This document shows positions 11,784 through 27,819 of a DNA stretch of 44,758 nucleotides, piece after piece (the stretch's first letter is position 1; the number at the start of each line of letters is the position of its first letter). The position numbers and the translations under genes are program-made. Below the pieces are notes generated by a model. It did no database searches. It was given only the letters and a program-made list of their open reading frames with translations, and was not told the DNA's origin. The stretch lies in NCBI GenBank assembly GCA_016191015.1, contig JACPPM010000192.1, positions 1 to 44,758 of the forward strand, written 5' to 3'. The stretch is from Acidobacteriota bacterium. GTDB taxonomy: Bacteria > Acidobacteriota > CAIWXX01.

Positions 11784-11847
11784 GATTTCACCTCCTTCGA
11801 ACGCCGGCATCAAGGCGTGCGGCCACCCTCTGCCGTCGTCGGCGATG

Positions 11848-12693
11848 CTACTGACCGCCCGGGAGCAGTTGCTGTTTGTTGCATCCTTCAATAACTCCGA
11901 TCGTCAGCGGCTCAAAGATCACACGTGGGCGGTAGCGGTCCACCAAGTCTTCCAGACGGGCTACGTACTCGGCCTCGATGGCATCGTCGCCCTTCAGGCC
12001 CTTCGGCGCCTGGCCGAGGAGCCGGGCATCCTTGCCCGAGTTTGTAGTGTAGAGCCTCTCCAGGCACTGGAGATCCTGTGCATAGTTCTGCCGCAGGCGG
12101 TCCACCTCGGCGACGATCGGTGAATCGTGCCGATAGGACTCCTGTGCTTCCCCCACCGCAGCCAGGAGGGTTGGCAGGGCCATGCGGAGCTCCGATCGCT
12201 TGAGGTCGAGCGGTCCGACGATCGCACCGAGCATAAACAACGGATCGTCCCCCGTCTGAAGGAAATGTTGCCCCTCATTGACCAAGAAGTACGCCGTGAA
12301 TCGCTGTCGGAGCCGGTACCCGAGCGAGAGTGACAGACCGAAAGCCAATCGTACGACCGTGGAGAGGGGACTCTGCTTCGACGCGGCCGGGAGCGTGGCC
12401 GCGAAACCAATAGGCGCGCAGGTGAGCTGCCGGGCAGCGGCCCTTTCCACCAGCCGGAGTCGATCGCGCCACTCATCTTGATCGCCTGGCTCCGACACGA
12501 CGACCATTGGCGCAATCTTGCGTCGCAGTGCCTCCCTCTCCTGCTCGCTCAGGAAGTCTTCGACGAAGTTCTTCCAGGTGTCAGAGGTGCCTTCCATTCG
12601 CCATCCCTTCGCGTCGTCGGACACCTGCGCTTCCAGATACTCACCGAGACTCCTGACCCATCGTTGCAGGAGATCAGCCGAGTCTCTACTCAT
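11848..12693 (-). CDS. Unknown protein coupled to SNF2 helicase
   Basis: A 281-residue protein. ATG 12693 has AAGGAGG five bases upstream and overlaps the end of the helicase gene by eight bases (ATGAGTAG), so the two proteins are probably made in fixed ratio. It is mostly helical and charged, with a hydrophobic centre (STVVRLAFGLSLSLGYRLRQ) too polar at its ends to call a membrane helix and a leucine-rich C-terminus. No family is recognised. Tight coupling suggests it is a helicase partner. Confidence 0.75.
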   Translation of the reverse strand: MSRDSADLLQRWVRSLGEYLEAQVSDDAKGWRMEGTSDTWKNFVEDFLSEQEREALRRKIAPMVVVSEPGDQDEWRDRLRLVERAAARQLTCAPIGFAATLPAASKQSPLSTVVRLAFGLSLSLGYRLRQRFTAYFLVNEGQHFLQTGDDPLFMLGAIVGPLDLKRSELRMALPTLLAAVGEAQESYRHDSPIVAEVDRLRQNYAQDLQCLERLYTTNSGKDARLLGQAPKGLKGDDAIEAEYVARLEDLVDRYRPRVIFEPLTIGVIEGCNKQQLLPGGQ

Positions 12694-14836
12694 CCAGCCT
12701 CCTTCGGCGTGGCTTCCATTGCCGGCTTGCTGCCGCTTCCGTCGGATCGAGGTCGGCTCCAAACTGTCGGAAGCGACGGCGGAGGTCATCCTCGTTCTCG
12801 CTGCTCAGGATGATCTGGCCGATGCCGAGGACATCCTCAGGGGTCGCGTATCGGGAATGGATCCCCTCCAGTTGGAAGATCCCCGGAATCACTCGGCCCA
12901 ACACGTCCTCGCAGACGTTCAGTTTCTCGCGGAGTGCCTGATAGACGTACTCCTCGATCGTGCCCCGGGTGATGTAGTTTTCAATGATGACGGTCCTGCT
13001 CGCTTGGCCGATCCGATCGACACGGCCGATCCGCTGCTCCACACGCATCGGGTTCCACGGAAAATCGAAGTTCACGACCACGTGACCGTCCTGGAGGTTC
13101 AGCCCCTGGCCACCGGCGTCTGTGGAAATGAACCAGGCGGCGTGCTTGGACTTCCGGAACCGCTCGATCTGGTGCTTCTTGTCCTCCTGAGACAGGCCGC
13201 CGTGATAAGAAATGATCTGGGGTTTGCGAAGGATGCCCAACTCGCGGAGCACCGGCTTCCCGAGTTGTCGGAGCCGAGAGTCAATCGCCTTCTGGGTTTC
13301 GCGGAATTCCACGTAAACGATGACGCGTCCAAAGCGGCGGGCGAGCAGCGGCAGCTGCTCCATCAAGTGATCGGTCTTCTGATGTTTGCCGGCACCCCAG
13401 TCCGCTGTCTCGTAGCGAGTGGCGATTTCCGCCAGCCTCCGATCCAATGCCTGGAGATCGTCGGCTGCGCGCGTTGCCGACGCGAGTTGTGTCACTCTCT
13501 TGCGGAGGGGACCGGCGAGGGTCTTGAGCGCGGCACGCGGATGGCTTGCGAGCTCGCGAAGAACCAGCATCGAGATGAGGACGAGCTGAGAGACGGCTTC
13601 CTCTCTGCCCGATGGTCTGCGGAGGAAGTTCGCGGAGCCGAGGTGCCAGCGATAGATGCCGCGCAGCAGCGAGAGCACATTGTCGTAGAGATCACGCTCG
13701 TCATCAGAGCGCTCCACGATCTCCACAGTCTCGATCTGTCTCCGCGGGAAGCTAAGATCAGTCTCATGCCGCTGGCGCTGATTCAAGACCGCCGTGAGCT
13801 TCGACTGGAGGTCTACGGCGTTTGCGATCTGTCGATCGTCTCGCATGAAGTTCTCGGCAAAGACCGCCTTCTGGCCAAGGTGACCGGGCCGTACAATGTT
13901 GATCTGATGGAAAATGTCGTACCCGCTGTTGTGGACCGGCGTCGCCGTCAGCAGCAGGCGAAACCGGGCGCGCAGGGCGTAGACGAATCGGTATCGCGCC
14001 GTGTCATCGTTGCGGAGCCCGTGCCCCTCGTCCACCAGCAGCAAGCCCCATCGCCGCGAACGGAGAATCTTCGCCCGGCGTTCTTCCTTCGCTGTGTCGA
14101 TGGATAGGAGCAGGTAGGGATCGGACTTGAGCGCCTCAGGCCTATAGCGGCCCTCCTCCTTCGTGATCTCCAAGTTCGACCACGCCGCGATTTCACCGGC
14201 CCACTGACTGCGCAGGTTCGACGGCACCAGGATGAGGCAGGTCAGCACGGGGTCGCGCCGCAGCAGCTCAGTGAGCACGAGGATCGCGGTAATGGTCTTG
14301 CCGAGCCCGACCTCATGGATCATGATGCCGTTCCCGAGCATTCGTTCGACGATTCTCTGCGCCTCCTCGATCTGATGGCGGAAGGCGGTCTGGCTCCGCT
14401 CGACGTCGCCGTGTGAGGAGAGGAAATGTCGCGGGCGGGCTTCAGCGTAGGCGTAGGCAGTCTCGATTAGAGCGGCCTGCCGGGCCGAGGAGACATCAGA
14501 CCGCAGCAGATCAAAAAGTGCCTTGTCCTGGGGGACCTCCGCCGGTTCGGCATCGATCACGACCTCGTGATGTTTGCGACGGTGCAGTTCCCGGCGGACG
14601 GCACGGGCCAGGCTCGAATATTCGATCTCCTTTTGCGTCCAGTCAAGTCCCCACCAGGCACAGTCGTCCAGGAGCTCGCGCCGCGTGACGTCTTGCAGAG
14701 ATGTCATGAAGCCATCGATGGAGACCATGTCGCTCGCGCTGAACCGGCCGAGAGCGCGTAGATAGGCCCCGAGGCGTGACAGGGGAATGTCACGGCCGGC
14801 CGGACTACGTCGTTCTTCCAGAATGAGATGTGGCAT
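12686..14836 (-). CDS. SNF2/RapA-like superfamily 2 helicase
   Basis: A 716-residue ATPase. Motifs in order: Walker A HEVGLGKT (174-181), DEGH (269-272), LLTATP (295-300), then the helicase C domain with YHGG, STDAGGQGLNLQ (571-582) and RVEQRIGRVDRIGQ (598-611). The layout matches SNF2-type DNA translocases such as RapA and the helicases of several defence systems. The ~150-residue N-terminal region is unassigned, and there is no nuclease domain. ATG 14836 follows GAGG and overlaps the upstream membrane gene by 32 bases. It presumably remodels nucleoprotein together with the adjacent unknown gene products (inference). Confidence 0.95.
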   Translation of the reverse strand: MPHLILEERRSPAGRDIPLSRLGAYLRALGRFSASDMVSIDGFMTSLQDVTRRELLDDCAWWGLDWTQKEIEYSSLARAVRRELHRRKHHEVVIDAEPAEVPQDKALFDLLRSDVSSARQAALIETAYAYAEARPRHFLSSHGDVERSQTAFRHQIEEAQRIVERMLGNGIMIHEVGLGKTITAILVLTELLRRDPVLTCLILVPSNLRSQWAGEIAAWSNLEITKEEGRYRPEALKSDPYLLLSIDTAKEERRAKILRSRRWGLLLVDEGHGLRNDDTARYRFVYALRARFRLLLTATPVHNSGYDIFHQINIVRPGHLGQKAVFAENFMRDDRQIANAVDLQSKLTAVLNQRQRHETDLSFPRRQIETVEIVERSDDERDLYDNVLSLLRGIYRWHLGSANFLRRPSGREEAVSQLVLISMLVLRELASHPRAALKTLAGPLRKRVTQLASATRAADDLQALDRRLAEIATRYETADWGAGKHQKTDHLMEQLPLLARRFGRVIVYVEFRETQKAIDSRLRQLGKPVLRELGILRKPQIISYHGGLSQEDKKHQIERFRKSKHAAWFISTDAGGQGLNLQDGHVVVNFDFPWNPMRVEQRIGRVDRIGQASRTVIIENYITRGTIEEYVYQALREKLNVCEDVLGRVIPGIFQLEGIHSRYATPEDVLGIGQIILSSENEDDLRRRFRQFGADLDPTEAAASRQWKPRRRRLDE

Positions 14837-15290
14837 GGATCCTCAACCATGCTTTCGCTTGCTGCCAAAGCATGAAGAAGTTGACGGTCGGCCCAACCCC
14901 TCTGGCCATGTAAGCGAGCAAGTTGAGACCGAACCACACCCAGCTCAGGCAAAGCTGCCATAGAGCCAGCGGCTCGGGTTGCTCACCCTGTGCCGAAGTG
15001 AAAATTTCCTCGGGACCGACGAATAGGACTACTACGATTGTGGCGAGAAACGCGACGTTTAGGAAGTGGAGAAGAAACATCCAAATCGAGAAAAGTTGCC
15101 CGGAAAAGGGTTTGAGCTTCTTCGCCACGTACTCACTCTCCGGAGCGTTCTCTGACCAATCCGGCTTGATCGCGTCGCGCAGTTGCGCGGCTAGGTCCTG
15201 CATCTCCTTCCGCTCGAGGAGAGCCCAAAGGACGGCCCAGCCCGTGCTGTTCAGGACAAGGCCGAACAGTGTGATCAGGTCAACCTTCAT
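14805..15290 (-). CDS. Three-helix membrane protein
   Basis: A 161-residue protein from ATG 15290 (the frame is open to 15332). Membrane helices lie at ~4-26 (LITLFGLVLNSTGWAVLWAL), ~68-91 (FLLHFLNVAFLATIVVVLFV) and ~108-129 (LCLSWVWFGLNLLAYMA), with a charged ~40-residue loop between the first two. It overlaps the upstream gene by 11 bases and the helicase by 32. A membrane protein between an unknown cytoplasmic protein and a helicase suggests a membrane-tethered complex or effector, as in Zorya-like systems, but no sequence relationship to ZorA/B is apparent. Confidence 0.75.
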   Translation of the reverse strand: MKVDLITLFGLVLNSTGWAVLWALLERKEMQDLAAQLRDAIKPDWSENAPESEYVAKKLKPFSGQLFSIWMFLLHFLNVAFLATIVVVLFVGPEEIFTSAQGEQPEPLALWQLCLSWVWFGLNLLAYMARGVGPTVNFFMLWQQAKAWLRIHATSHSGRTT

Positions 15291-16101
15291 ACCCTGCCTC
15301 GCTCGGGATCTCATAGATACTGAAGAGCTCATCCCTGATCTTGTTGTCCTTCACCACGTCGACCACGTTCTTATGCACCCAAAGTGTGTTGTCCGTCTTA
15401 CTGATCAAGGCCGCGTCGCGAAGGGGGACCTTTTCTCGTAGCCGAAGCTCTTCGATCAGGGAGTTAGCATCGAGGAGGTACCGACGGGAAGGCACGCGAA
15501 AGATCGGTCCATATGCTCTGTTGAGCTCGTACTCCCTCTCGATCATGCGGTGGACCGGATCCAGCCCGCGCAGGATGCGATAGATCCGGCGGAGAGCGAT
15601 CGGGAAAAGAAGCGCTTTGCGGAACCGGGCAATGAAGTCGGATGCCATGTACGAAGCACGGAGCTTTGTCGTGTTGAAGATCAGTGCAAGATCGTCGTCG
15701 TCGGGGAGCTGGAACGCCCAGATGTATTCCACGTATTGGCGCATGCGCCAGAGAAGAAGCTCACGGGGGGTGATGAAAGGTAGTCTGCCGTTCAGCCACA
15801 GGCCATACTCGCGTTGCGACACCATCACCAGTCGCTCGCGCACGAACTTGAGCAGGAACGTGCGCTTGGCGGTCTCGTCCGCATCGGGCTGGTACGCCGC
15901 CTTCATTGAGGCGATCGTGCACTGAGGGCGCGCGTCCTCGGGAATGCTGTTGGCGAACACGAGAAGGACGTTGTCCAATATCTCGGGGACGACCGGTTCC
16001 TTGAGACGTAGAAAGTTCTCTGCCTCTGCCCGCAGGGACTCCTCTTCCGCTTCCCTCTCTTTGCCTTCGCGAGGTCCCTCGCTTTTCTTCTGTCTGGTCA
16101 T
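15280..16101 (-). CDS. Unknown soluble protein, first gene of unit B
   Basis: A 273-residue protein with a very charged N-terminus (~1-30, rich in K, E and R), then an all-helical body with aromatic-rich stretches (YVEYIWAFQLPDDDDLALIF) and a C-terminal segment NTLWVHKNVVDVVKDNKI. No signal peptide or membrane helix. ATG 16101 has GGAGG six bases upstream and lies 43 bases beyond the conserved box B, giving a normal 5' leader. No family is recognised. Confidence 0.78.
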   Translation of the reverse strand: MTRQKKSEGPREGKEREAEEESLRAEAENFLRLKEPVVPEILDNVLLVFANSIPEDARPQCTIASMKAAYQPDADETAKRTFLLKFVRERLVMVSQREYGLWLNGRLPFITPRELLLWRMRQYVEYIWAFQLPDDDDLALIFNTTKLRASYMASDFIARFRKALLFPIALRRIYRILRGLDPVHRMIEREYELNRAYGPIFRVPSRRYLLDANSLIEELRLREKVPLRDAALISKTDNTLWVHKNVVDVVKDNKIRDELFSIYEIPSEAGYEG

Positions 16102-16574: not shown

Positions 16575-19500
16575 CTAGTAGTCGCCTCCTCGATCTCGAT
16601 CGATCCGCCTCGCTCGGTCCTTCAGTTGCCCGGTGCGCTTTTCGAGGATCTCCCGGGCGTGGACCCACATTGGGCTGGGGCGCTCCCCAAGCAGCGCGGT
16701 GAGAGAGAGTTGGTCAGCAGGATCATCCAACAGGATTGGATCGCCGAGCGCCAGGATCCCCTCCAACACCACCCATTTGCGTGGGGAGTTCAACCCCTGG
16801 AAGCTGTTCATGAGAAGTCTGATGGAGTGCAGCCTGGATCGGCATCTCAATGACCGTTGGGCAGCGCGCCTCACTTCGAACTCACCGTCCTCGAGAGCGA
16901 GCTGTCTGAGTACTTCGTCCAGTTCGGCATGCGAAGACCATCCCGCCATCTCTGCGGCTGCTTCACGAACAAGGGGATCCGGTGCTTCAGCCATCTTCCT
17001 TAGGGACCGGCCAATTGTCGCGTGATCGCCCACATGCCTCAGTGCCCGCCCGATGCTCCAACGAACCCACGATTGCCTTTCACGCGTCATGTGATCGAGG
17101 AGGAACTCATTGGCTTGGCCAGGATTAAGGTCCAGCAGAAGTTGAGGTAGTGGATCCACATCTTCCCACCCCTCCTCCATCGCCCTCGTTCCCAAGCGGA
17201 ACGCAATCTCAACGTCGCGCTTGGCAAGACCGGTGATTGCTGCTGTGATTCGGTCTGGATCGGGGGAATCTCCGAATCCCTTGAACACCTCCTCGACCAA
17301 GAATTCTCGCACGGCGCGGTCGTCAGAGTCGCCGAGAGCCTCCAATGTCAGATTGGTGACTCGCGGTCGTCCTGATTCCTGGATGTGCCGCCAAATGCTG
17401 TTAGCTATGGAAACGCGATCAGCATTGTTCCTGGCGTTGATCCACTCATGGTTAAGCAGCTGCAAGCGCAGGGCAGCTCCTACGTCGTTAGATCTAAGGC
17501 CCGACACGGACTCGCGCGCCGCTCCCACCGCCGAATCGGTCCCTATCTCGAGCAATGTCTTGAATGCGGCCCTTCGATACTTCGGCTGCGCCAGCTGGCT
17601 TCTGAGGAATTCAACTGTCACGCCATCGGAGGCTCCAAGCATCCTCAAGATCTTGACGAGCACTCCTACCTCGCTGCTTGCCGGGTCGATCCGAGTCAGG
17701 GCTTGTTGGATATCACTGACGGCATCCTTTCTGCCAGACAGGCCCAGCACCCAGAGTGCGCCGACTCGCAACATGGGATCGTCCTTCTGCAAAAAGAGAA
17801 CCGCCTCACGAACGATATCTTCGCCAAATGGTTGACTGCCAGCGAGGAGCCACTTAAGCTCACGACTGTATCCGGCTGGATACAGAAGGATTGACCGCCC
17901 AATCACGTCGCACTCCTGCAACGACGCAAGGCTCAACAGGGTAGCCCTCCGTACGACCACCGCTTCAGGTGTGTCCGGCCTGGCTCGCCCGGTTGCCATT
18001 TCGGCAAGGATCTTTCGGGTATCTGTGTCCGGGTTCACCAGTGACCAAGTTAGGCCGGCGAGAAGGAACTGAAACTCTGGCCTCCGAAGCCAGGAATTCG
18101 TCAACTGAGTTATGCCGACGCCTCCGATCTTGAAGAGAAGATCCCCTAACTGCTTGGCCTCAACGTATCCAGCAAGGCCGATGTTCGTAGCTCTTACTGC
18201 GATCCGGAGGAGCTTCTCTTCCAGGGACGTACCCGAGAGGGTCCAGATTCTCTCTAGAGTCGTCGGGGACCATGTTTTGTTGAAAGTCTCGAGCAGTATG
18301 GAGAGGCGTGGATCGTGCTGAGAAGGATCCAAGCTGAGGCATTGGTCTATCACTTGATCTAGGGCTTCGAGGAGAACGCGCGTGGTTTCGTCGTCCATTT
18401 CGTCCGGTATGGATTGATAGAGGTCGGCGAGGAACACTCGATCACTCAAGTCAAATCCGAATCTCAGACGGAGGGCAATCTGCGTCTGACCAGGTGAACG
18501 CAGCAGAAGCTCGGGCAGCCACCACTTCACGAAGAACCTAAGCATGTTGCGATTCATTCCGGGCAGAGACTCAATGGTCCAAGCGGGACTGATGCGGGCC
18601 GCAGCAGCAAGTGCCTCGGCCGCGACCAAGCCTGCTTCGTGTTTCATCCACCCCGAGAGCCTGGCGACGTCGGTCGCATCACCGTAACGACGGATGCATC
18701 GGCAAAGCGGTCTGAGAGCTTCATCCCGTGGATTGCCGAGTAGCCGATCCCTGTGCTTCTGCCACATCTCGGAACCGATCGGCATAGGCATGCTCGCCAG
18801 CAGGAATGCGAGCTGATCGAGAAGTGGGGATGACGGTTCGGAGTTGGAGAGCTCACCATCCAACCACCCCGGGTTCTCCTGTATACAAGCACGGAGCGCT
18901 CCCCATGACATCAGATGGCGATGAACCCATTCCTGACCCTGTTCGGACTCCAACCCTGCCGCGTTTCGGGAATGGATCTTCCAGAGACGATCCAAGATGG
19001 ACTCATCGCCGACACCATGCTTGGCCAGAACCAACATGGACGCCTCCTGCATCACCTCGTGCGGATCGAACAACCAGTCGAGCGCAGCCCTCAGGACAGG
19101 CTCCTGCTCCCACTCCGCTATCAGATGCATGGTCGACGCTATCAGGTAAACACACACATGCTCCGTCCGGTCGGTGACGTTCCGCAGCCGACTCTCGAGA
19201 AGCGGAATCATCCTAGAACCGAGTCGTGGAAGCAGGTTCTTGTACGTCCAATCGGGGTACCTGGCCTCGTATGTTTCGATCAGAGAAAGAGCGTCGGGGA
19301 TCAACTGCATCCTCCTATCGCAGAGTATCCACACCAGGTCCTCCAACAGGCGATCGGTGATCAGCAACTCTCGTCGCGCGGGCATCTCGTCGATGGAGCG
19401 GACCCGCTCCACGAGCTGAGATGTCGTGATGGAGTTGTTGCGGCGCTGTTCTATGAGACCCTTTGCTATTGACCAAACCAACAGGCGGTTGTGCCACATC

Positions 19501-21191
19501 TCCACTCGACCCTCATCTACTAGTCGCGTGAGCCATCCTGCCGCCTCGAGATGGCTCTGGATTTCGTCAGTGATACCAACCTCCGCGAGAGCAGTCTGAG
19601 TCCAGGGGTAAGAGGTCTTCGGGTCGAGTATCGTGAGCGCAAGAGCACCGAGGCGTGCCGCGGAACCGGGGAGGATCGGCCCCCGACGGTACTCTTCTAT
19701 GCGGCCCCAGAACTTCTCAATGATCTGATGCTCCAAATTGGGGTGCCATCCCTCCGACTCGGCAAGATCACAAAACAGCTTCGCAAGGAGTGGTCGTCGG
19801 AGAGTGTTGTTCAGCCTCAGCGGAAGACGCGTCCAGTCGTGGCCGTTGAGTTCGAGATAGACATGCATTTCTTGGTTGGTAAAGTCGTCGACTCTGAGAA
19901 GAGACGCCTGTTCGGGATGGGACCTCGCTACTGCCCGACCGATCTCCAAGGTTGTGCCCAATCCCAGGTGGAATCCCGGCCAATCCGAGGTTCTTTCGAC
20001 GAGAGCGTGGGCCTCCTCGGGGTCTCGCACATCATCAAGAAGGACTGTTACTGAAGGCGTCTGAGTGAGGCCGCCTGCCGAGGCTAATCGAGCGGGTAGC
20101 TCGTGCAGCGGTGGGGATGCGGCGCGACCGAGCATTTCTTGCCAGATGACTCTTGCCGCTTCATTGAGGTCGTCATCGACGTTACCGGTGGCCCTGACGA
20201 AAACCACTAGACTGCCGGGCGCACTCATCACCTTGCCTACGGCACAGAGACGCCATGTCTTCCCTTGCCCGCTCTCGCCAGCGACCACCAGCACGGACGT
20301 AGAGGCTGACCAAGTCGGCTGAGGCCGCACGTCCATTTCCGGACGGTAGTGATTGCGTCGAAAGGACCTTTCCAACCATCGGATTTGGGTCTCGCTTAGC
20401 CTAGCTAGGTCACCGAGGGATTGTCCCGTCAGCCCAACCTTCGAGAGCAACTCCTGCGCCGTGACCCGAGTCTCACCTCTCCCCCCCAGTTCCAGGATGA
20501 GGCCGCAGAGTTCCCTGCGCTTCACATCTATATCTTCCCGAAATGTTATGAGCTGTGACAGTAGGCCCCCGATATCTCGCTCAAGATCTGCGATGGTGCG
20601 CTGACCATGGAACTTGAACCGGGAGAGCAAGTGCCACAGCTTTCGATATGTGACTTGAGACGACTCTCCGTAGACGCGATCCCCTAGGACCTCCCTCACG
20701 CGATCAGCTATCCATATGAAGAAATCACGCTCTGTCTGCTTCACTCCGTTCCCGAACTCCTGAAGAGTCTTAGGATCCAGGGCGGAGAGCCCATCGTCTG
20801 GAACCATCTGGCAAAGTTGTTCGAAGAACTGCATTCCGTTGGTCCATTGACCCCTGCGCCCTTCGGTGACAAACCTATACTCGACCAAATCACCCAGATT
20901 CGAGTCATCCACGGCCAGGTATAGATCCGGCAAAACTCTTTCCACAAGATCGACCAGGGACCAAGTTCCCTGCGAGGACTTCGCTTTCCACTGCTCGACG
21001 ATGCGTCGGTGAGGACTCTGCACCTGGATGTCGCCGCCGCCGTGTCGGGGCTCGAGTATGAGCGAGGTGCTCTCAATCTCGCCGGTGTCGGTCACCGGCA
21101 AGTCAACGCAGAGGTAGGCCGCCCAGTGGATACTCCCCAGAATCTGGTAGAGGATGCCATAGATCGCGGCAGATCCTCCGGATTGCGGCAC
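16575..21191 (-). CDS. STAND-type NTPase with Cap4/DUF4297-like nuclease N-terminus and helical repeats (Avs-like)
   Basis: A 1538-residue protein starting at GTG 21191 behind GGAGGAGG. Residues 4-20 (GGSAAIYGILYQILGS) and GGDIQV at 52-57 followed by VEQWKAK (65-71) look like a PDDEXK nuclease of the DUF4297/Cap4 kind, with D54 and Q67-x-K69 as likely catalytic positions. A P-loop follows, Walker A GESGQGKT (305-312) and Walker B VTVLLDD (381-387). The remaining ~1000 residues contain HEAT-like helical repeats (for example VGALWVLGLSGRKDA, LVREAAAEMAG). This nuclease-NTPase-repeat order is that of Avs antiphage sensors, which recognise a phage protein with their repeats and then cut DNA. The ligand here is unknown. 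It ends unit C. Confidence 0.82.
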   Translation of the reverse strand: MPQSGGSAAIYGILYQILGSIHWAAYLCVDLPVTDTGEIESTSLILEPRHGGGDIQVQSPHRRIVEQWKAKSSQGTWSLVDLVERVLPDLYLAVDDSNLGDLVEYRFVTEGRRGQWTNGMQFFEQLCQMVPDDGLSALDPKTLQEFGNGVKQTERDFFIWIADRVREVLGDRVYGESSQVTYRKLWHLLSRFKFHGQRTIADLERDIGGLLSQLITFREDIDVKRRELCGLILELGGRGETRVTAQELLSKVGLTGQSLGDLARLSETQIRWLERSFRRNHYRPEMDVRPQPTWSASTSVLVVAGESGQGKTWRLCAVGKVMSAPGSLVVFVRATGNVDDDLNEAARVIWQEMLGRAASPPLHELPARLASAGGLTQTPSVTVLLDDVRDPEEAHALVERTSDWPGFHLGLGTTLEIGRAVARSHPEQASLLRVDDFTNQEMHVYLELNGHDWTRLPLRLNNTLRRPLLAKLFCDLAESEGWHPNLEHQIIEKFWGRIEEYRRGPILPGSAARLGALALTILDPKTSYPWTQTALAEVGITDEIQSHLEAAGWLTRLVDEGRVEMWHNRLLVWSIAKGLIEQRRNNSITTSQLVERVRSIDEMPARRELLITDRLLEDLVWILCDRRMQLIPDALSLIETYEARYPDWTYKNLLPRLGSRMIPLLESRLRNVTDRTEHVCVYLIASTMHLIAEWEQEPVLRAALDWLFDPHEVMQEASMLVLAKHGVGDESILDRLWKIHSRNAAGLESEQGQEWVHRHLMSWGALRACIQENPGWLDGELSNSEPSSPLLDQLAFLLASMPMPIGSEMWQKHRDRLLGNPRDEALRPLCRCIRRYGDATDVARLSGWMKHEAGLVAAEALAAAARISPAWTIESLPGMNRNMLRFFVKWWLPELLLRSPGQTQIALRLRFGFDLSDRVFLADLYQSIPDEMDDETTRVLLEALDQVIDQCLSLDPSQHDPRLSILLETFNKTWSPTTLERIWTLSGTSLEEKLLRIAVRATNIGLAGYVEAKQLGDLLFKIGGVGITQLTNSWLRRPEFQFLLAGLTWSLVNPDTDTRKILAEMATGRARPDTPEAVVVRRATLLSLASLQECDVIGRSILLYPAGYSRELKWLLAGSQPFGEDIVREAVLFLQKDDPMLRVGALWVLGLSGRKDAVSDIQQALTRIDPASSEVGVLVKILRMLGASDGVTVEFLRSQLAQPKYRRAAFKTLLEIGTDSAVGAARESVSGLRSNDVGAALRLQLLNHEWINARNNADRVSIANSIWRHIQESGRPRVTNLTLEALGDSDDRAVREFLVEEVFKGFGDSPDPDRITAAITGLAKRDVEIAFRLGTRAMEEGWEDVDPLPQLLLDLNPGQANEFLLDHMTRERQSWVRWSIGRALRHVGDHATIGRSLRKMAEAPDPLVREAAAEMAGWSSHAELDEVLRQLALEDGEFEVRRAAQRSLRCRSRLHSIRLLMNSFQGLNSPRKWVVLEGILALGDPILLDDPADQLSLTALLGERPSPMWVHAREILEKRTGQLKDRARRIDRDRGGDY

Positions 21192-21210
21192 TTGCGGGTC
21201 CTCCTCCTGT

Positions 21211-21841
21211 TCAGCCGCTCGACTGGTAACTTAGCATATCTCCAAGTTTATCCTGATACGTTCTCCATCCGGAGTTCGGTCCCCCCGGGAGAGAGACTGC
21301 GCGTTGCTTCGAACTCCTCATGCAAACGGTCCCCCCTACCCACTTCATGCACACGGCTCCGCGCCCTCTGTTCGGGTAGCATAGCCACGGATGTCGCTCC
21401 ACCGGTCGAGTTAGGGGCGATCCGTTCGGGTGGAGGTGAGAATAGCGAGCGCAATCCAGAAAGTACTTACCGCCCACGACCGGGATCCCGCCGTGCCACC
21501 GATTGAAAACGTGCGCATCCGCGCCATTCACCTCTCGCCTCCAAGGAGCAAGGTCCTCGCGCGGCGTCTCGCGGAGCATATGGTAGTCATTCGACATGTC
21601 GAAGACAGCGTGGACGACGAGGCCACTATCAGCGACCGCCTCCCCGACTGGGTCGAGGAATTCGGCCAGTTCGGCATCGCCAAGAAAGAACGGGCACGCG
21701 CGTCATGTCACGCAACAGGAACTGACATAGAGCCAGTTCGTACTCAAGCCCAGTCAGCCAGCTCACCCCCGTTGGTACCAGTCGTTCGAATCCGTTCACA
21801 GGTGAAAATGAAAATTGAAGAACCGGCCGTCGGCGGCTCAT
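21211..21841 (-). pseudogene. Unknown gene interrupted by a +1 frameshift
   Basis: Two minus-strand frames join to one plausible protein of about 209 residues. The first runs from ATG 21841 (SPVNGFERLVPTGVSWLTGL, then YELALCQFLLRDMTR) to about 21690; the second, one base offset, continues with FFLGDAELAEFLDPVGEAVA and later RWHGGIPVVGGKYFLDCARY, ending at 21211. The composite starts 42 bases after the upstream gene stop and ends 20 bases before the STAND gene, so it fills an operon slot exactly. The switch lies near a run of C and T (CCCGTTCTTTCTTGG), so a sequencing error, a recent mutation or programmed frameshifting are all possible. No family is recognised. Confidence 0.62.
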
Positions 21842-21882
21842 TGATTCATGTCCGTGTTCGAAGGGGCGTTGCTCCATGCACG

Positions 21883-22782
21883 TCAGACGGAGCTGAACAG
21901 TTCGTGAACGATGTGAATTGGCGTGAAACTGGCGATCTTGCGTGAGTACATGAAGTACCGTGCGCCCCTGCTGGTGTTCGGCGGGAGAATCGCTGCGCCT
22001 TTCAGAATATCTTTCGGACGGGCTTCGTGGAATAAGAGTTCGGCTTCTTTCGGAATTGGCACAGCCTCGACGTCCCAGAGAGCATCGCCACAGGTTATCC
22101 ATCCGGCCCGTGCCATGGCGCGCAACTGAAGAAGATGTCCGTAGGCGTGGTCGATTCTGCCGCGCGTCACAGTCGCGGAGAATCGTCCCCCCAGTACCGA
22201 AACAAGTGTGAGATAGGACCTCAGCACGCCAGCACCGTGGCCATCGGATGTTGCGATGTCCCGAGTCGTACACCAGTGTTCCCATACCGGTCCGCCTTTC
22301 TTGGCAAGATAAACAGGGTGATCGTAGTCTTGACGACGGTCGTCCTTCTTGGGATCGCCCGGATCTTTTGCCTTCCGATCGAGAATATGGCCGCGTGACG
22401 CTCCCTCCACGTAGCCGACGAATGAGTGTCGTTTCATTGCTTCGGAGGCGTGAGTGCTTTTCAGCGCTACAGTCTTGACGATCGGGCCATCGCAGTGGCT
22501 GAAGGTGGGCACGTAGCTCTTCCTGGCAGAATCATAAGTAATTCCGGCCCATCCCGGGCGGCCCTGTTCGTCACGAAATAGTCCGGCGGCAGCGACAAGG
22601 TGGCACAGGACGTGCCAACTCCCTCGGCCGCCTGATCTCGTTCCAGGGCCACCGCAGGTCAGCACAAGGTTCCAATCGACAAACATTCTCTGCGATTTGC
22701 CAAAGTTGGTGCGGGAGTCGACAAGATTTCCGGATACGTCGGTTTCAAATTGATACAGTCCACGTTTGGGCATGTTCTTCAC
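21883..22782 (-). CDS. Unknown protein coupled to MfnB-like enzyme
   Basis: A 299-residue product from GTG 22782, whose start overlaps the MfnB-like gene stop by four bases (GTGA); an ATG nine bases later is an alternative. It contains conserved-looking aromatic and histidine-rich motifs (SHCDGPIV, GPVWEHWCTTRD, ATSDGHGAGVLRSY, GRIDHAYGHLLQL) that could form a metal or nucleotide site, and no signal peptide or membrane helix. I do not recognise the family. The overlap implies it acts with the MfnB-like protein. Confidence 0.75.
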   Translation of the reverse strand: MKNMPKRGLYQFETDVSGNLVDSRTNFGKSQRMFVDWNLVLTCGGPGTRSGGRGSWHVLCHLVAAAGLFRDEQGRPGWAGITYDSARKSYVPTFSHCDGPIVKTVALKSTHASEAMKRHSFVGYVEGASRGHILDRKAKDPGDPKKDDRRQDYDHPVYLAKKGGPVWEHWCTTRDIATSDGHGAGVLRSYLTLVSVLGGRFSATVTRGRIDHAYGHLLQLRAMARAGWITCGDALWDVEAVPIPKEAELLFHEARPKDILKGAAILPPNTSRGARYFMYSRKIASFTPIHIVHELFSSV

Positions 22783-23954
22783 CCACGCTTTTCCCTGGGG
22801 TCGGCCTCTTCGAACTCTTGCACTAGACCCCTAACACGCGGACGCTTGATGTCGTTGCTCTTCCGAATACCGCTGCTATGACGGGCGGCACCGCCGAAAC
22901 AGATGAGATCGACTCGTGATTTGACGTAAGGCTTGATTTCAGCACATCGGATCGACCCCGCAATCCAGAACTCGATGCCTTTGTGGTGGGCTGTGTTGGC
23001 CAGTTCCAGCGTATCATTCTCCGAGTAATAGTCCCGGTAACGGCGCCCGGCATGCTTTTCGAAAGTGTCGATCAAGATTCCCTGCCACTTCGCCTTGGAT
23101 GTGAGTTCGATCGCGCGATGAGCAATTTCCATGGGGCGATCACCGTTTGACTCTACGCCGATATCAGGGAAAAACACGGCGACGAGTGGATAACGAGGGG
23201 GATCGTTCAGCGGCTTGGGAAGGAGCCTTTGCGCGGTCGCTTTGTCAACGAAAGAACGCACGAGCTTCATCTGGCGAGAAACCTCGGCGCCTGCCATATC
23301 TTGTTTTGTGATGTCAAGATTGGCGAATCCGACCTTGATCACATCGGCACCGGCATGGATGGCCGCCACGACCTTCGAAGCAGTGAGGGCGGCAGTGGAA
23401 CGTGTATCCACTTGCCCGGTCTTCGCGGACCGAACAATCTGGGGACTTTCGGAAACATTGGTCGAGACATAGACATATTCACCAATCTGTTTGCGGATGG
23501 AGAAGATTTCGTCAACCGACGCAGGTCCTAACGCCTGCTCAATGTGTTCGACATCCACGACGACGCGATCGTATGCGACTAGAGTGGGGATCTCCTGACC
23601 TTCAAAGCCGCTGATCAGACAGAGGGAGTTCACCGGGCGGGGGTTCGCCGAGCCGGTCCAGGCGCTCATCCGGAAACCGTGTCGGTGATGTGAACCCCGT
23701 CCAGATGCGTCGATGGCCGCGCGACGTAGCTCGAGAAGTTTGCGGCCTCCTGGATCCACGTACCGGAGTGCTTCGTTGATTGTTTTCCAGCGACGCTTGT
23801 TATCCCGGGAAATCCGCTGAATTTCGCGGATGACTTGGCTTCCCGCATCGATGGCCGCTTGGAGTGCCAAGCCGCTGTTTTCAGGGGTTCCGACTTTGAG
23901 AAGAATGCTGAGATCGGTAGGGCCACGTTTGACGAGATACTTGTGTCTGGGCAT
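22779..23954 (-). CDS. MfnB-like (5-formylfuran-3-yl)methyl phosphate synthase-related TIM-barrel protein
   Basis: A 391-residue protein from ATG 23954 (AAGGGG five bases upstream). The C-terminal ~240 residues match the MfnB/UPF0264 barrel, with HAGADVIKVGFA (~200-211), GILIDTFEKHAG (~292-303), IAGSI (~331-335) and LICFGGAARHS (~350-360). MfnB converts two glyceraldehyde-3-phosphate to the furan precursor of methanofuran using a Schiff-base lysine. Here the N-terminal half (~150 residues) is an unusual extension, and the expected first lysine site is not clear, so activity may differ. It sits among genes for a modified peptide and a STAND sensor, with no other methanofuran gene in view. Confidence 0.75.
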   Translation of the reverse strand: MPRHKYLVKRGPTDLSILLKVGTPENSGLALQAAIDAGSQVIREIQRISRDNKRRWKTINEALRYVDPGGRKLLELRRAAIDASGRGSHHRHGFRMSAWTGSANPRPVNSLCLISGFEGQEIPTLVAYDRVVVDVEHIEQALGPASVDEIFSIRKQIGEYVYVSTNVSESPQIVRSAKTGQVDTRSTAALTASKVVAAIHAGADVIKVGFANLDITKQDMAGAEVSRQMKLVRSFVDKATAQRLLPKPLNDPPRYPLVAVFFPDIGVESNGDRPMEIAHRAIELTSKAKWQGILIDTFEKHAGRRYRDYYSENDTLELANTAHHKGIEFWIAGSIRCAEIKPYVKSRVDLICFGGAARHSSGIRKSNDIKRPRVRGLVQEFEEADPREKRG

Positions 23955-24235
23955 GATCACCCCTTAGAAAAGTGGTTGTTCCGACGTCGGAGTGGGATAC
24001 CCCAACATGTTGCGTTCGAAAGGCGCGATGGGGTGGGATCGGGGTGGCAGTGGAGGAGGTGAAGTATGCCGAGAGGAGCACATCCCAGCAGCTCGCCACG
24101 GCTATTCCTTCGCCGTGGCTCGCCTGAGGCCGCTCTGCGCCCACGTGATGGGCGCTCCTGGCTCTCCGGTTTCGTTGCTGCCGGGTCGCCTCCCCGGTTT
24201 GAAACTACTCCCACAAAAGCGCGATCCAACACAAC
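23955..24235. other. Gap with hairpin and an uncertain 91-codon frame
   Basis: An inverted repeat of eight bases (GCCACGGC at 24095-24102, GCCGTGGC at 24112-24119) around a nine-base loop could form a hairpin in the transcript, with no following T-run. A minus-strand frame from TTG 24232 stays open to 23957; it begins three bases after the preceding gene and its stop overlaps the GTG at 23960, which is suggestive, but its arginine-rich composition and weak start make it doubtful. Confidence 0.4.
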
Positions 24236-25246: not shown

Positions 25247-25399
25247 TCATTGAAGCAGGCAACCGCAACACTGTTCGTCGTTGATGCAAACGCAGGAGCA
25301 GAGCCCTTCGCCGATCTCATTGTTTTCAGGGAACATTAGCTCGGTTTCGGCGAGGATCTGCGGGTCAGCTGGAACCAGTTGCACGTCTGGCTCACTCAT
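25247..25399 (-). CDS. Cys-rich RiPP precursor peptide (50 aa)
   Basis: The 50-residue peptide has an acidic N-terminal leader (~1-31, with ETELMFPENNEIGEG) and a C-terminal core GLCSCVCINDEQCCGCLLQ carrying six cysteines in 14 residues (34, 36, 38, 44, 45, 47). AAAGGAGG lies about nine bases before the ATG. It overlaps the end of the radical SAM/SPASM gene by eight bases. Short acidic leader, Cys-rich tail and an adjacent SPASM maturase together mark a ribosomally made, post-translationally modified peptide, most like ranthipeptide or sactipeptide precursors, where the enzyme makes thioether links to cysteine. The exact modification is unknown. The core lacks the regular spacing of the SCIFF family. 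Confidence 0.85.
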   Translation of the reverse strand: MSEPDVQLVPADPQILAETELMFPENNEIGEGLCSCVCINDEQCCGCLLQ

Positions 25400-26714
25400 C
25401 TTGTTCGCCTCCTTTCTCCCGGGTGAGTAGTGCCACAATTTGATCGTAAAGAACCGCCCGATTGAAGTGGCAGCGCGACCATCCAATCCTACGTAGGTCC
25501 GGGCAATCACCCGCGCAATGCCACCGTGCAAAGCAGGCACAGCACGCCTCAGGAACGGCGTTCAACTCAGCGATATGATTCAACCGCTCCTGATCGAGAA
25601 TGATCTTGCCCGAATTCGCCTGAATAGTTCCATAACCATAGTCCGTTCCGCCGTGATCTCGGTGGCAGGCCGTGATCTGACCATCGACACAGACGGCGAA
25701 TGAGGGGATGGTCATTGCTCCACAGTAACGTGTGATGAGTCGCTTGAGCGAAGGCCCCGACGAGGTCACTCGAATGCCAAGCTCCGCCCCTATCTCCTCT
25801 GCCTGCTTGAACTTCTCGAGGAACACGGTCAGTTCCGGAGGCTGCAAAGTCGGGGACACCAGTGCTCGGCCCAAAGGAACCAGCGGCTCGAATGCGACCA
25901 CAAATCCTCGTCCGAACTCGCAGGCAAACCGCTGGATGATCATGGGAAGGTGATCGACACTCTTGGCCGAGACGGTGCTCCGGATTCCTAGGCGCAGGGT
26001 CGGGACCGTGAGAAAGTGCCTGATGGTTTCGCACACGACAGCGTACGAACCCCGCCCCGCGCGGTTCGGCCGGTGAAGATCCTGAATGTTCTGGTCCCCG
26101 TCGAGCGAGACCGTGAGGTGGTCGAAATGGGCGGCAATAAACTGCCTGCGATCAGGACCATAATACCCGTTTGTGGTCATGGACAGGAAAAGCCGGTCAA
26201 CTCCGGAATCGGGGCTGACAACCAGATGCTTGAGTGTCACCACTGCGCGAGTGAAGAGATCCCATGGCATGGTGGGCTCCCCTCCGACGGCGAAGGAAAC
26301 CGATAGCGTCCTTCGCGGGGTTTTGGCCGCGGCGGCAGCTGCGTATTCGATCGCAGTCTGGAGGGTACTCCAATTGGCATCTCGGGGCTTGTCGGCTTCC
26401 GCGTGGCAGTAGAGGCAGGCCAATGTGCAGTTTCGGGTCAGACCGATACCAAGATGAAAAGCATTCGGGGGAGCGGCGACCGGCGCCACGGCCTTAGAGA
26501 GAGCAGCACTCAGCCGTGTGCTTATATGCGGCGGCGTTCTGCCCGTCTGAATAGCTTCGGTGGCGCTCGCGTTTAGTAGTAGCGCGAGTCGGAGGGTGGG
26601 AGCGAAGAGTACGTAGGGTGGTCTGCCTGCGGAGGACAGGAGCCAGTAGTCATGACCGTACCATTGTGCATGGGAATCACAGACTGCGGACGTCGGGTGA
26701 TCCGCCACGTTCAC
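25392..26714 (-). CDS. Radical SAM/SPASM peptide maturase
   Basis: A 440-residue enzyme from GTG 26714, chosen for the GAGGAG six bases upstream. The radical SAM cluster motif NCTLACLYCHAE gives cysteines 96, 100 and 103. A glycine-rich GGEPTMPWD and SLDGDQNIQDLHRP motif follow, as in SPASM maturases. The C-terminus holds the SPASM cysteines (CVDGQITACHRDHGG, ACCACFARWHCAGDCP, WSRCHF) that bind two auxiliary [4Fe-4S] clusters. It probably installs thioether or C-C crosslinks in the Cys-rich peptide encoded just downstream, with which it overlaps by eight bases. N-terminal residues ~1-90 may include the leader-binding domain. Confidence 0.95.
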   Translation of the reverse strand: MNVADHPTSAVCDSHAQWYGHDYWLLSSAGRPPYVLFAPTLRLALLLNASATEAIQTGRTPPHISTRLSAALSKAVAPVAAPPNAFHLGIGLTRNCTLACLYCHAEADKPRDANWSTLQTAIEYAAAAAAKTPRRTLSVSFAVGGEPTMPWDLFTRAVVTLKHLVVSPDSGVDRLFLSMTTNGYYGPDRRQFIAAHFDHLTVSLDGDQNIQDLHRPNRAGRGSYAVVCETIRHFLTVPTLRLGIRSTVSAKSVDHLPMIIQRFACEFGRGFVVAFEPLVPLGRALVSPTLQPPELTVFLEKFKQAEEIGAELGIRVTSSGPSLKRLITRYCGAMTIPSFAVCVDGQITACHRDHGGTDYGYGTIQANSGKIILDQERLNHIAELNAVPEACCACFARWHCAGDCPDLRRIGWSRCHFNRAVLYDQIVALLTREKGGEQDE

Positions 26715-26842
26715 GTCGCTCTCCTCGGAGTCTCTGGATCGCCGCGGTTGTGGGAAGCCAGAAGTGCCTTGCGACGATCTTGACGCGGGTTCACGTGAGG
26801 ATCCCAATCTGTCTCACGCGCAGAGCGCGCTGTTGCGTCCAT
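26711..26842 (-). CDS. Small ORF (43 aa) coupled to the radical SAM gene
   Basis: A charged 43-residue peptide (MDATARSARETDWDPHVNPR at its N-terminus) whose TGA overlaps the maturase GTG in GTGA form. The ribosome site is weak. If translated, it would couple the protease-maturase gap and might serve as a separate leader-recognition protein, although it is short for one. Recorded because neighbouring gene starts use the same overlap. Confidence 0.33.
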   Translation of the reverse strand: MDATARSARETDWDPHVNPRQDRRKALLASHNRGDPETPRRAT

Positions 26843-26934
26843 GACCAAGAGTCCGCCCGAGTATCCGAAGAAGGCGGATTTTCGCTATGAACAGGTGTGA
26901 TTTGACACGAGGCCCATTCAGCCAAAGTTTCGCT

Positions 26935-27819
26935 CTATCCTTCGACAAACGTGACGTTGAGGCTTCTCATGAATTCCTTGATGATCTGGATGTGCACGCA
27001 GCCGCCGACATGAAGGAATGCGCTGTCCTGCACCCGCTTCGGCAGTCCCTGCCTGCGAACCTGTTGGTCTACGTCGAAGTCAAGATCCAAGTGCCCTGTC
27101 ATGGATTGGATGCCCCAGACTCTCCCCTGTGAATCGAATGCCGGCCCGCCGCTCTGTCCGCGAAGCCCCGGGGTACTCATTTCAAAACCGATCAGTTCCG
27201 CGCCTTGCCCAATCAAGTGACGGGTAACCATCCCTTCTATGGGGAATCGGGGGGTTGTATGCTGACCGGTCTGCGTCCATTCAATCTCGTCGCGATCAGG
27301 GTCGTAGCCGAAGTCGGTGAACTCGACAAAAGGGAATCCAAGTCTGCAGAGAGATTTTCCGGGTTTCAGGGAGCCGGAGTCGGGTGCGAAAACCGGGAAC
27401 TCGGTGCAGAGCAGCTTCTCAAAGCCTTCAAACTTGAGGAGGGCAATGTCATAGGTCTTATGCCTCTGCATTGTGAGGGTTTGAAAGCTGTCTAGGCAGT
27501 CAACGAATTTCACTTTCATCTGGGCCAGTTCTCTGCGGTCCAGGTGATACTTCCGTTCGAGTTCCCGACGGACCTGCTTCGCCTTCTTTCCATCCGCATA
27601 CGCCCCGAGTTCGCCTTTGAACAGCCGATAGCGCTCGTTGATGTGGTCGGTGGCCATGATTTGGTCAGCAACATGTCCACATGTGACCGCCCAACCATCC
27701 GCGTTGACGAAGAAGATGGTGGCGGCGCCAGGCTGGACGATGGCTGAGCCGTATGTGCGTGAGATGAAGAAGATGGGACGTGTGAATTGAGCAGCTTTCT
27801 CGATTGCGTCTACGTACAT
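26935..27819 (-). CDS. Cytoplasmic trypsin-like serine protease
   Basis: A 294-residue protein with the chymotrypsin-fold triad: H49 in AVTCGHVAD, D124 in TYDIALLKF and S223 in GLRGQSGGPAF. ATG 27819 follows GGAGG at five bases and directly abuts the stop of a 14-residue leader peptide. There is no signal peptide, unlike DegP/HtrA, and no PDZ domain. An insertion at ~60-110 is long and charged. Next to a radical SAM maturase and Cys-rich precursor, it is a good candidate for leader-peptide removal, or alternatively an effector protease of a defence system. Both roles are inference. Confidence 0.88.
   Translation of the reverse strand: MYVDAIEKAAQFTRPIFFISRTYGSAIVQPGAATIFFVNADGWAVTCGHVADQIMATDHINERYRLFKGELGAYADGKKAKQVRRELERKYHLDRRELAQMKVKFVDCLDSFQTLTMQRHKTYDIALLKFEGFEKLLCTEFPVFAPDSGSLKPGKSLCRLGFPFVEFTDFGYDPDRDEIEWTQTGQHTTPRFPIEGMVTRHLIGQGAELIGFEMSTPGLRGQSGGPAFDSQGRVWGIQSMTGHLDLDFDVDQQVRRQGLPKRVQDSAFLHVGGCVHIQIIKEFMRSLNVTFVEG

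What the first reader, a model, noticed from the sequence alone, without database searches (positions are those of the whole stretch)
16575..21191. Large STAND NTPase with Cap4/DUF4297-like nuclease start, an Avs-like architecture
N-terminal GGSAAIYGILYQ, GGDIQV and EQWKAK suggest a PDDEXK nuclease, followed by clear Walker motifs and ~1000 residues of HEAT-like repeats. Co-location with a RiPP pathway and sigma factor is unusual for Avs genes, which are usually solitary.
Basis: partly seen in the sequence, partly recalled or inferred. Interest (0 to 1): 0.8.

Follow-up and report, generated by a model that had tools for sequence, protein, structure and literature searches.

The report
Bacterial NLR-like nuclease receptor, HEAT sensor
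This bacterial gene encodes a very large protein built like an animal or plant immune receptor, with a DNA-cutting front end, an ATP-driven switch and a long curved tail that probably recognises an invading virus; it belongs to a scattered family in which the cutting part has been swapped for other domains while the rest stayed the same.

Summary
The ORF lies on the MINUS strand (GTG at 21191, stop at 16575-16577, 1538 aa, strong ribosome-binding site). Residues 1-~250 are a PD-(D/E)xK nuclease of the Cap4/LmuA/DUF4297 kind: the predicted fold matches HerA-DUF4297, LmuA, Cap4 and the Avs3 nuclease, and E47, D54, Q67 and K69 are invariant in 19 of 19 aligned sequences. Residues ~260-620 are a STAND/NACHT ATPase. 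Residues ~621-1538 are a HEAT solenoid.

I found 21 homologous loci, mostly alpha-proteobacterial, about 25-30% identical. No neighbouring gene is shared; 9 loci have neighbours resembling defence genes (hand-picked). Decisive is natural effector exchange: a Geminicoccaceae homologue is 74% identical to a Mesorhizobium one over 1276 residues of switch and sensor, yet has DUF4062 (reported as a TIR-like NADase) in place of the nuclease; a second homologue has another unrelated N-terminus.

Best reading: a solitary, Avs-like antiphage receptor; an unknown trigger binds the HEAT tail, the ATPase assembles and DNA cleavage starts. It is not Avs1-5 by profile. New variant of a known kind. The RiPP genes and sigma-like ORF nearby look unrelated.

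The parts
16575..21191 (-). the gene: 1538-aa nuclease-STAND-HEAT protein, GTG start, stop codon included
   Evidence: single copy in own genome; 21 homologous loci
21200..21208 (-). ribosome-binding site AGGAGGAGG
   Evidence: read directly from the sequence
20442..21191 (-). residues 1-~250, Cap4/LmuA/DUF4297-like PD-(D/E)xK nuclease domain (putative effector)
   Evidence: alpha-beta-beta-beta-alpha-beta order in the model; VIA Z 14.5 HerA-DUF4297 9c1m_G, 14.3 LmuA 9nxx_D, 13.9 LmuA-DNA 9hr5_C, 12.4 Cap4 7yia; profile comparison with 5 Cap4_nuclease members; LmuA profile hits in relatives
21030..21053 (-). E47-P48...D54: first acidic positions of the putative active site
   Evidence: E47, P48, D54 in 19 of 19
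20985..20993 (-). Q67-x-K69: QxK part of the putative active site, on the third strand
   Evidence: Q67 and K69 in 19 of 19; QVK/QIK at the same place in Cap4_nuclease members
19332..20414 (-). residues ~260-620, STAND/NACHT-type NTPase with its helical and winged-helix region
   Evidence: VIA Z about 22 to NOD2, NLRP3 and NLRC4 over 256-635; weak nSTAND3/nSTAND_NTPase5/NACHT hits in relatives
20256..20279 (-). Walker A (P-loop) GESGQGKT, residues 305-312
   Evidence: G305, S307, G308, G310, K311 in 19 of 19
20028..20042 (-). Walker-B-like LLDDV, residues 384-388
   Evidence: D386 in 19 of 19, D387 in 16 of 19
16578..19331 (-). residues ~621-1538, HEAT-repeat solenoid (putative sensor)
   Evidence: HEAT_2 52.8 bits; all-alpha model, pLDDT 84.2, pTM 0.81; Foldseek top CAND1 and karyopherins; VIA top alphaRep and PP2A-A, Z 11-12

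Best explanation
The gene encodes a solitary bacterial NLR-like (STAND) immune receptor. Shown by computation: a Cap4/LmuA-type PD-(D/E)xK nuclease domain with intact conserved residues, then a STAND/NACHT NTPase with intact Walker motifs, then a HEAT solenoid of about 920 residues; a scattered family that looks horizontally spread; and exchange of the N-terminal domain for other domains, including DUF4062, while the NTPase-HEAT chassis stays the same. Inferred: at rest the HEAT tail holds the NTPase in a closed, nucleotide-bound monomer; an invader-derived ligand, most likely a phage protein, binds the HEAT superhelix; the NTPase opens and oligomerises; the nuclease domains are brought together (a DUF4297 domain dimer and an Avs3 Cap4 domain tetramer are described in PMC11291478, figure legend) and cut double-stranded DNA of phage and host, giving abortive infection. 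The trigger is not known.
For: Fold of residues 1-635: Foldseek best hits are Avs4 (8dgf_A, E 2.9e-9) and NLRs; VIA gives NOD2/NLRP3/NLRC4 at Z about 22 for the NTPase, Avs3 8dgc_A at Z 14.9 over model residues 1-486, HerA-DUF4297, LmuA and Cap4 at Z 12.4-14.5 for the N-terminal domain. Invariant residues. PADLOC LmuA profile hits the N-terminal domain in 3 of 10 relatives scanned (L012 5e-5, L007 1.6e-4, L008 0.009). hhalign against 5 Cap4_nuclease (PF14130) proteins of the same phylum: score 35.0 against a maximum of 21.8 in 200 column shuffles, with E, D and QxK aligned. Effector exchange: L022 has DUF4062 (67.8 bits, cut-off 24.7) and its residues 171-1446 are 74% identical to 270-1541 of the nuclease-bearing L025; L009 has a third N-terminus; the tree needs two separate changes. 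Defence setting: L018 beside IetS, L016 beside a PtuA-like protein, L012 beside ZacB and helicases, L014, L010, L025, L015 and L005 beside other PADLOC families (hand-picked). No shared neighbour in 22 loci, window included. DUF4062 is reported to be an antiphage TIR-like NADase (PMC13174449, abstract) and DUF4297-HerA a dsDNA nuclease acting by abortive infection (PMC11291478, passages).
Against: No experiment. The window protein itself has no Pfam hit outside the HEAT tail and no PADLOC hit. hhalign probability is only 24-41% despite the shuffle result. pTM of the 1-635 model is 0.65, so the domain packing is uncertain. The gene's own neighbourhood holds no recognised defence system apart from a SNF2 helicase resembling several defence helicases. 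Only this genome carries the full architecture among 396 sampled genomes of its phylum. The defence-neighbour count comes from picked genes.
Confidence: 0.75

Rival explanations
1. It is simply a divergent member of a named Avs type (Avs1-4) that profile libraries miss: nuclease-STAND-helical sensor of phage terminase or portal.
For: Foldseek best hit is Avs4; Avs3 aligns over both nuclease and NTPase. Short P-loop hits to the Avs2 model in L007 and L022.
Against: No PADLOC Avs hit for the window protein. The tail matches HEAT/ARM solenoids. Six of the seven distant STAND loci fetched from its own phylum match only the NTPase profile, none the nuclease or HEAT profile.
Confidence: 0.2
2. It is an anti-plasmid or nucleic-acid-sensing system rather than a phage-protein sensor: the HEAT tail reads DNA or DNA-bound complexes, as LmuA partners are thought to do.
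For: The nuclease is closest to LmuA (Lamassu) and HerA-DUF4297 types; Lamassu acts on plasmids and phages (PMC10586767, passages).
Against: No SMC-like, HerA or LmuC partner gene recurs beside it. Two homologues sit on plasmids themselves. Avs receptors with known triggers bind phage proteins (PMC12931631, passages).
Confidence: 0.15
3. It is a housekeeping or developmental STAND regulator whose N-terminal domain binds DNA without cutting it.
For: STAND proteins include transcription regulators (a maltose-system regulator complex, 8bob_C, and a STAND-TPR protein, 6mfv_A, appear).
Against: All expected catalytic positions are invariant in 19 of 19; replacement by a putative NADase makes best sense for an effector; patchy distribution.
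Confidence: 0.06

Closest known systems
Avs3 and Avs4 (AVAST systems; 8dgc, 8dgf)
   Same: N-terminal nuclease, central STAND NTPase, long helical C-terminal sensor, one large protein; best Foldseek hits and VIA Z 14.9 to Avs3 over residues 1-486
   Different: No PADLOC Avs hit for this protein; tail looks HEAT rather than TPR (the TPR nature of Avs3/4 sensors is recalled, not from a call); trigger unknown
LmuA nuclease of Lamassu and Cap4 of CBASS (PF14130 Cap4_nuclease)
   Same: PD-(D/E)xK domain with YQ helix, E...D...QxK pattern; VIA Z 12.4-14.3
   Different: There the nuclease is fused to another docking domain or to SAVED and is activated by other subunits or a second messenger; here it is fused to a STAND NTPase
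HerA-DUF4297 (9c1m)
   Same: Best VIA match of the N-terminal domain, Z 14.5, rmsd 3.4, 191 aligned; nuclease plus ATPase logic
   Different: Two proteins, with a HerA ring rather than an NLR-type switch
Avs5 (Sir2-nSTAND3-repeats) and DUF4062 proteins (Swarozyc; NACHT-DUF4062 proteins such as TEP1, NWD1)
   Same: Same plan with an NADase effector; the homologue L022 has DUF4062 on this family's chassis; nSTAND3 is named in Avs5 (PMC12931631, passages)
   Different: Different effector from the window protein and different sensor
DSR2
   Same: A HEAT-repeat region forms the cavity that receives its regulators (PMC11263360, passages)
   Different: Sir2 effector, no STAND NTPase mentioned in the passages read, only six HEAT repeats

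Membership tests
PD-(D/E)xK nuclease, Cap4/LmuA/DUF4297 type | alpha-beta-beta-beta-alpha-beta core fold | tested here: met
   Secondary structure order H7-30, E43-45, E55-58, E63-69, H79-92, E103-109; VIA Z 12.4-14.5 to four nuclease entries of this type
PD-(D/E)xK nuclease, Cap4/LmuA/DUF4297 type | conserved E...D...QxK active-site pattern | tested here: met
   E47, D54, Q67, K69 in 19 of 19; same positions invariant in 5 of 5 Cap4_nuclease proteins
PD-(D/E)xK nuclease, Cap4/LmuA/DUF4297 type | match to the PF14130 profile above its cut-off | tested here: not met
   No PF14130 hit in the window protein nor in its genome; profile-profile similarity exceeds 200 of 200 shuffles
PD-(D/E)xK nuclease, Cap4/LmuA/DUF4297 type | metal-dependent dsDNA cleavage | not testable with these tools
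   needs biochemistry
STAND / NACHT NTPase | P-loop, Walker B acidic pair, NLR-like helical and winged-helix domains | tested here: met
   VIA Z about 22 to NOD2, NLRP3, NLRC4 over 256-635
Avs (AVAST) types 1-5 | effector, STAND NTPase, repeat sensor in one protein | tested here: met
Avs (AVAST) types 1-5 | hit to a PADLOC Avs model | tested here: not met
   none at E up to 1 for the window protein; 1 of 17 relatives hits Avs2 at E 0.0013; the two Avs2 hits cover only about 40 residues at the P-loop
Avs (AVAST) types 1-5 | TPR-type sensor | tested here: inconclusive
   Pfam finds HEAT_2 and the structural matches shown are HEAT/ARM, but absence of a TPR row excludes nothing
Avs (AVAST) types 1-5 | activation by phage terminase, portal or another phage protein | not testable with these tools
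   needs phage and trigger co-expression
RiPP pathway component | co-directional, tightly spaced operon with the RiPP genes and recurrence of that linkage in relatives | tested here: not met
   About 690-base gap to the next larger minus-strand ORF upstream; no shared neighbours in 22 loci

The most novel reading that the evidence does not exclude
This is an undescribed family of bacterial NLR-like receptors, separate from Avs1-5, whose fixed NACHT-HEAT chassis is reused with different killing domains (Cap4-type nuclease, DUF4062 NADase, and a third unknown domain), so that nature has already made receptor pairs (L022 and L025, 74% identical over 1276 residues) that share a sensor but differ in effector.
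Probability: 0.55. Interest if true: 0.6.

Novelty: new variant of a known kind. Interest (0 to 1): 0.5.

Why it matters
Bacterial STAND receptors are the prokaryotic counterparts of animal and plant NLRs, and only a few families have known triggers. A family with a HEAT sensor and exchangeable effectors widens the known range, and the L022/L025 pair is a ready-made natural experiment: if both react to the same trigger with different outputs, sensing and killing are shown to be separable modules. It would also tie the newly described DUF4062 NADases to bacterial NACHT-like switches, as in human TEP1 and NWD1.

Tried and rejected
Searches that led nowhere: the single-sequence scan of genome contigs; a full-length single-protein search of 396 genomes of the phylum, which apart from the gene itself returned only fragments of the HEAT tail; phage genomes and viral contigs, no relatives; PHROGs, no hit for this protein; direct PDB sequence search, only chance or HEAT hits for the single protein and P-loop or chance hits for the family profiles.

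Considered and rejected: the RiPP cluster or a sigma factor as functional partner (distance, gaps, no recurrence); E66 as the catalytic acid (Q67 is the invariant one); a trypsin-nuclease pair of the kind in PMC12799240 (abstract and introduction seen: there the nuclease is an MBL-fold proenzyme and the protease is fused to the immune gene; here the trypsin-like ORF is about 6 kb away and the nuclease is fused to the STAND protein). VIA for the HEAT region listed no Avs chain among its 50 rows; this excludes nothing.

Rows dropped: L024 (broken frames) from all alignments; L009 and L022 from nuclease alignments because they lack that domain; L013, L017 and L011 (broken or cut) from full-length alignments; L019 (close to L018) from A3 and the tree; L005 and L006 from the alignments used for folding. 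No name of the source organism was available; I did not try to identify it.

Prior description: library searches showed no paper that describes this architecture, judged from listings and the passages read; subscription papers are not held, so this is weak.

Full report
The finding points to 16575-21191. The gene is there, but on the minus strand: the plus strand is interrupted by many stops, the minus strand reads 1538 residues from a GTG at 21191. A strong ribosome-binding site (AGGAGGAGG) precedes the GTG, and the start agrees with the ATG starts of homologues. The genome (6.43 Mb, 349 contigs, unnamed) has one copy. The gene stands alone: about 470 bases separate it from the next minus-strand ORF downstream (15280-16101) and about 690 from the next larger one upstream (21883-22782), leaving aside an unsupported 128-aa ORF at 21211-21597 and an overlapping 218-aa ORF at 21629-22285. 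One promoter-like site was found upstream (0.2 expected by chance); I give it no weight.

By itself the protein is almost invisible to family libraries. Pfam reports only HEAT repeats (HEAT_2, 52.8 bits, best stretch 1362-1449); PADLOC and PHROGs report nothing; NCBIfam only two weak matches far below their cut-offs. So the claim had to be tested through relatives and structure.

Relatives: tblastn found two on plasmids, Rhizobium indigoferae (25% identity, 98% of the query) and Sphingomonas parapaucimobilis. Their alignment then brought 19 loci from the genome collection: Alphaproteobacteria mainly, also Magnetococcales, Betaproteobacteria, Planctomycetota, and one labelled Bacillus. None was found in phage or viral collections. 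Of 21 homologous loci, 18 keep the nuclease-like N-terminus (three of them cut or frame-broken), one (L024) is a broken copy with a recognisable N-terminus, and two (L009, L022) have other N-termini. In the gene's own phylum 17 of 396 genomes match a profile of residues 1-660, but only this genome does so over the whole length. Seven of the partial matches were fetched: six hit the NTPase profile, none the nuclease or HEAT profiles. The distribution is patchy, as expected of mobile defence genes.

N-terminal domain: in 19 aligned sequences G6, G12, Q16, E47, P48, D54, Q67, K69, W77, D89 and R225 never vary. AlphaFold2 on 17 sequences gives mean pLDDT 82.1, pTM 0.65, with the alpha-beta-beta-beta-alpha-beta order of the PD-(D/E)xK core in residues 7-109. 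VIA-align 2 places it on HerA-DUF4297 (9c1m_G, Z 14.5, rmsd 3.4, 191 aligned), LmuA of Lamassu (9nxx_D, Z 14.3; 9hr5_C, Z 13.9), Cap4 (7yia, Z 12.4) and, together with the NTPase, Avs3 (8dgc_A, Z 14.9, model residues 1-486, rmsd 8.2). As an independent line I took five PF14130 (Cap4_nuclease) proteins found in the same phylum. Their invariant residues include Q26, E50, D54, Q68 and K70; hhalign lines the E, D and QxK motifs up with ours, score 32.0 and probability 24%. Rerun locally the score was 35.0 (probability 41%) against a best of 21.8 in 200 column-shuffled controls and 15.2 for the reversed profile. PADLOC's LmuA model hits the N-terminal region of 3 of 10 relatives scanned. The nuclease reading is therefore strong even though the window protein has no direct profile hit. 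The residue at the acid position of the third-strand motif is Q67 (QxK); E66 is D in 2 of 19. That PF14130 was formerly called DUF4297 is recalled.

Middle: residues 256-635 superpose on NOD2, NLRP3 and NLRC4 with Z about 22, and Foldseek's best hits are Avs4 and NLRs. nSTAND3, nSTAND_NTPase5 and NACHT appear as weak hits in 6, 11 and 9 of 19 members. nSTAND3 is the STAND type reported in Avs5 (PMC12931631, passages).

Tail: residues 599-1538, folded with 16 sequences, give pLDDT 84.2 and pTM 0.81, all helices. Foldseek's list is led by CAND1 and karyopherins, VIA's by an alphaRep and PP2A-A, Z 11-12. The tool warns that Z under about 13 in helical repeats may show only a common arrangement, so I use it to say 'HEAT/ARM-type solenoid', which agrees with the Pfam match, and no more. 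HEAT repeats as part of the cavity that receives regulators have a precedent in DSR2 (PMC11263360, passages).

Effector exchange is the strongest evidence for how it works. L022 (Geminicoccaceae MAG) begins with DUF4062 (67.8 bits, cut-off 24.7). From residue 171 on it is 74% identical to L025 (Mesorhizobium loti) over 1276 residues, while L025 begins with the nuclease; the two N-termini show no relation (23% over 156 forced columns). In a tree of the NTPase-HEAT part L022 and L025 pair at 100/100, inside a nuclease-bearing group, and L009 (third N-terminus, no Pfam hit there) pairs with nuclease-bearing L012 at 96/96: two separate exchanges (window, L006, L008 and L012 have long branches, so the L009-L012 pairing is the less sure one). 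DUF4062 has just been reported, in a preprint, as a TIR-like NADase that acts in antiphage defence and sits next to NACHT ATPases in human TEP1, NWD1, NWD2 and NPHP3 (PMC13174449: abstract, one section and passages). A domain that can be swapped for an NADase while sensor and switch stay the same is most simply an effector.

Setting: no neighbour family recurs with the gene in more than 2 of 22 loci, window included, so it looks like a one-gene system. I picked ten neighbouring proteins that looked interesting, from 9 loci (325 ORFs were called in 22 loci), and all ten matched PADLOC models at E 1e-5 or better, among them IetS (L018), a PtuA-like ATPase (L016), ZacB and helicases (L012), PDC-S06 (L014), PDC-M54A (L010) and PDC-S73 (L025); the match of the L007 neighbour is short. 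In L012 the flanking genes look by eye like PglZ and BrxL of a BREX-type locus; this is from reading, not from a call. Because the ten were hand-picked the count is an illustration, not a rate. The window itself has no recognised system, only a SNF2 helicase (12686-14836) that resembles DrmD and other defence helicases without reaching any NCBIfam cut-off.

Mechanism: shown are the domains, conserved residues, exchange and patchy spread. Inferred are ligand sensing by the tail, ATP-dependent opening and oligomerisation, and activation of DNA cleavage with abortive infection, by analogy to Avs1-4 (nucleases that cut phage and host genomes after recognising terminase or portal; PMC12931631, passages) and to DUF4297-HerA (PMC11291478, passages). 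The trigger is unknown.

Classification: it works like an Avs protein. By the tests run I would not file it as Avs1-5, since no Avs profile hits it, and the sensor looks HEAT rather than TPR (inconclusive as a test; the TPR nature of Avs3/4 is recalled). It is best called a STAND receptor with a Cap4-type nuclease and a HEAT sensor, a new variant of a known kind. Paper searches showed no description of this family, but only open-licence papers are held.

Noticed in passing
L022:7455-11795 versus L025:7872-12497: Natural chimera: 74% identical NTPase-HEAT parts, DUF4062 in one and nuclease in the other.
   Followed up: yes
L009:7542-~8000: Third N-terminal domain of about 150 residues without any Pfam match on the same chassis; nature unknown.
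   Followed up: partly
window 25247-27819 and 22779-23960, minus strand: RiPP-like group: radical SAM/SPASM protein (closest PapB-type ranthipeptide maturase, 104.7 bits, cut-off 340), a small Cys-rich ORF next to it, a trypsin-like protease, and a 4-HFC-P synthase-like protein (62.1 bits) that is unusual company for them.
   Followed up: partly
window 11848-16101, minus strand: Four overlapping ORFs, probably one operon: unknown 273 aa, unknown 175 aa with likely membrane segments, SNF2 helicase 716 aa, unknown 313 aa. Possibly a separate uncharacterised system.
   Followed up: no
window 9884-9964, plus strand: ARAGORN calls a tRNA-Thr (CGT) that overlaps, antisense, the end of a 686-aa ORF (9831-11891); either the ORF's end or the tRNA call may be wrong, or a tRNA marks an integration site.
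   Followed up: no
L010:13500-18629 (minus strand) and L054:1845-7253 (minus strand): Other very large proteins starting with a DD...QVK nuclease-like domain; the L010 one lies beside a homologue and matches PDC-M54A; perhaps a separate nuclease-STAND-like family.
   Followed up: partly
L018: Contig labelled Bacillus sp. 2B10, but its copy groups with Sphingomonas; likely mislabelled or contaminated.
   Followed up: no
L024:3121-5832 and L013:3817-8315: Homologues with broken reading frames, L024 in several pieces, L013 at one place.
   Followed up: no
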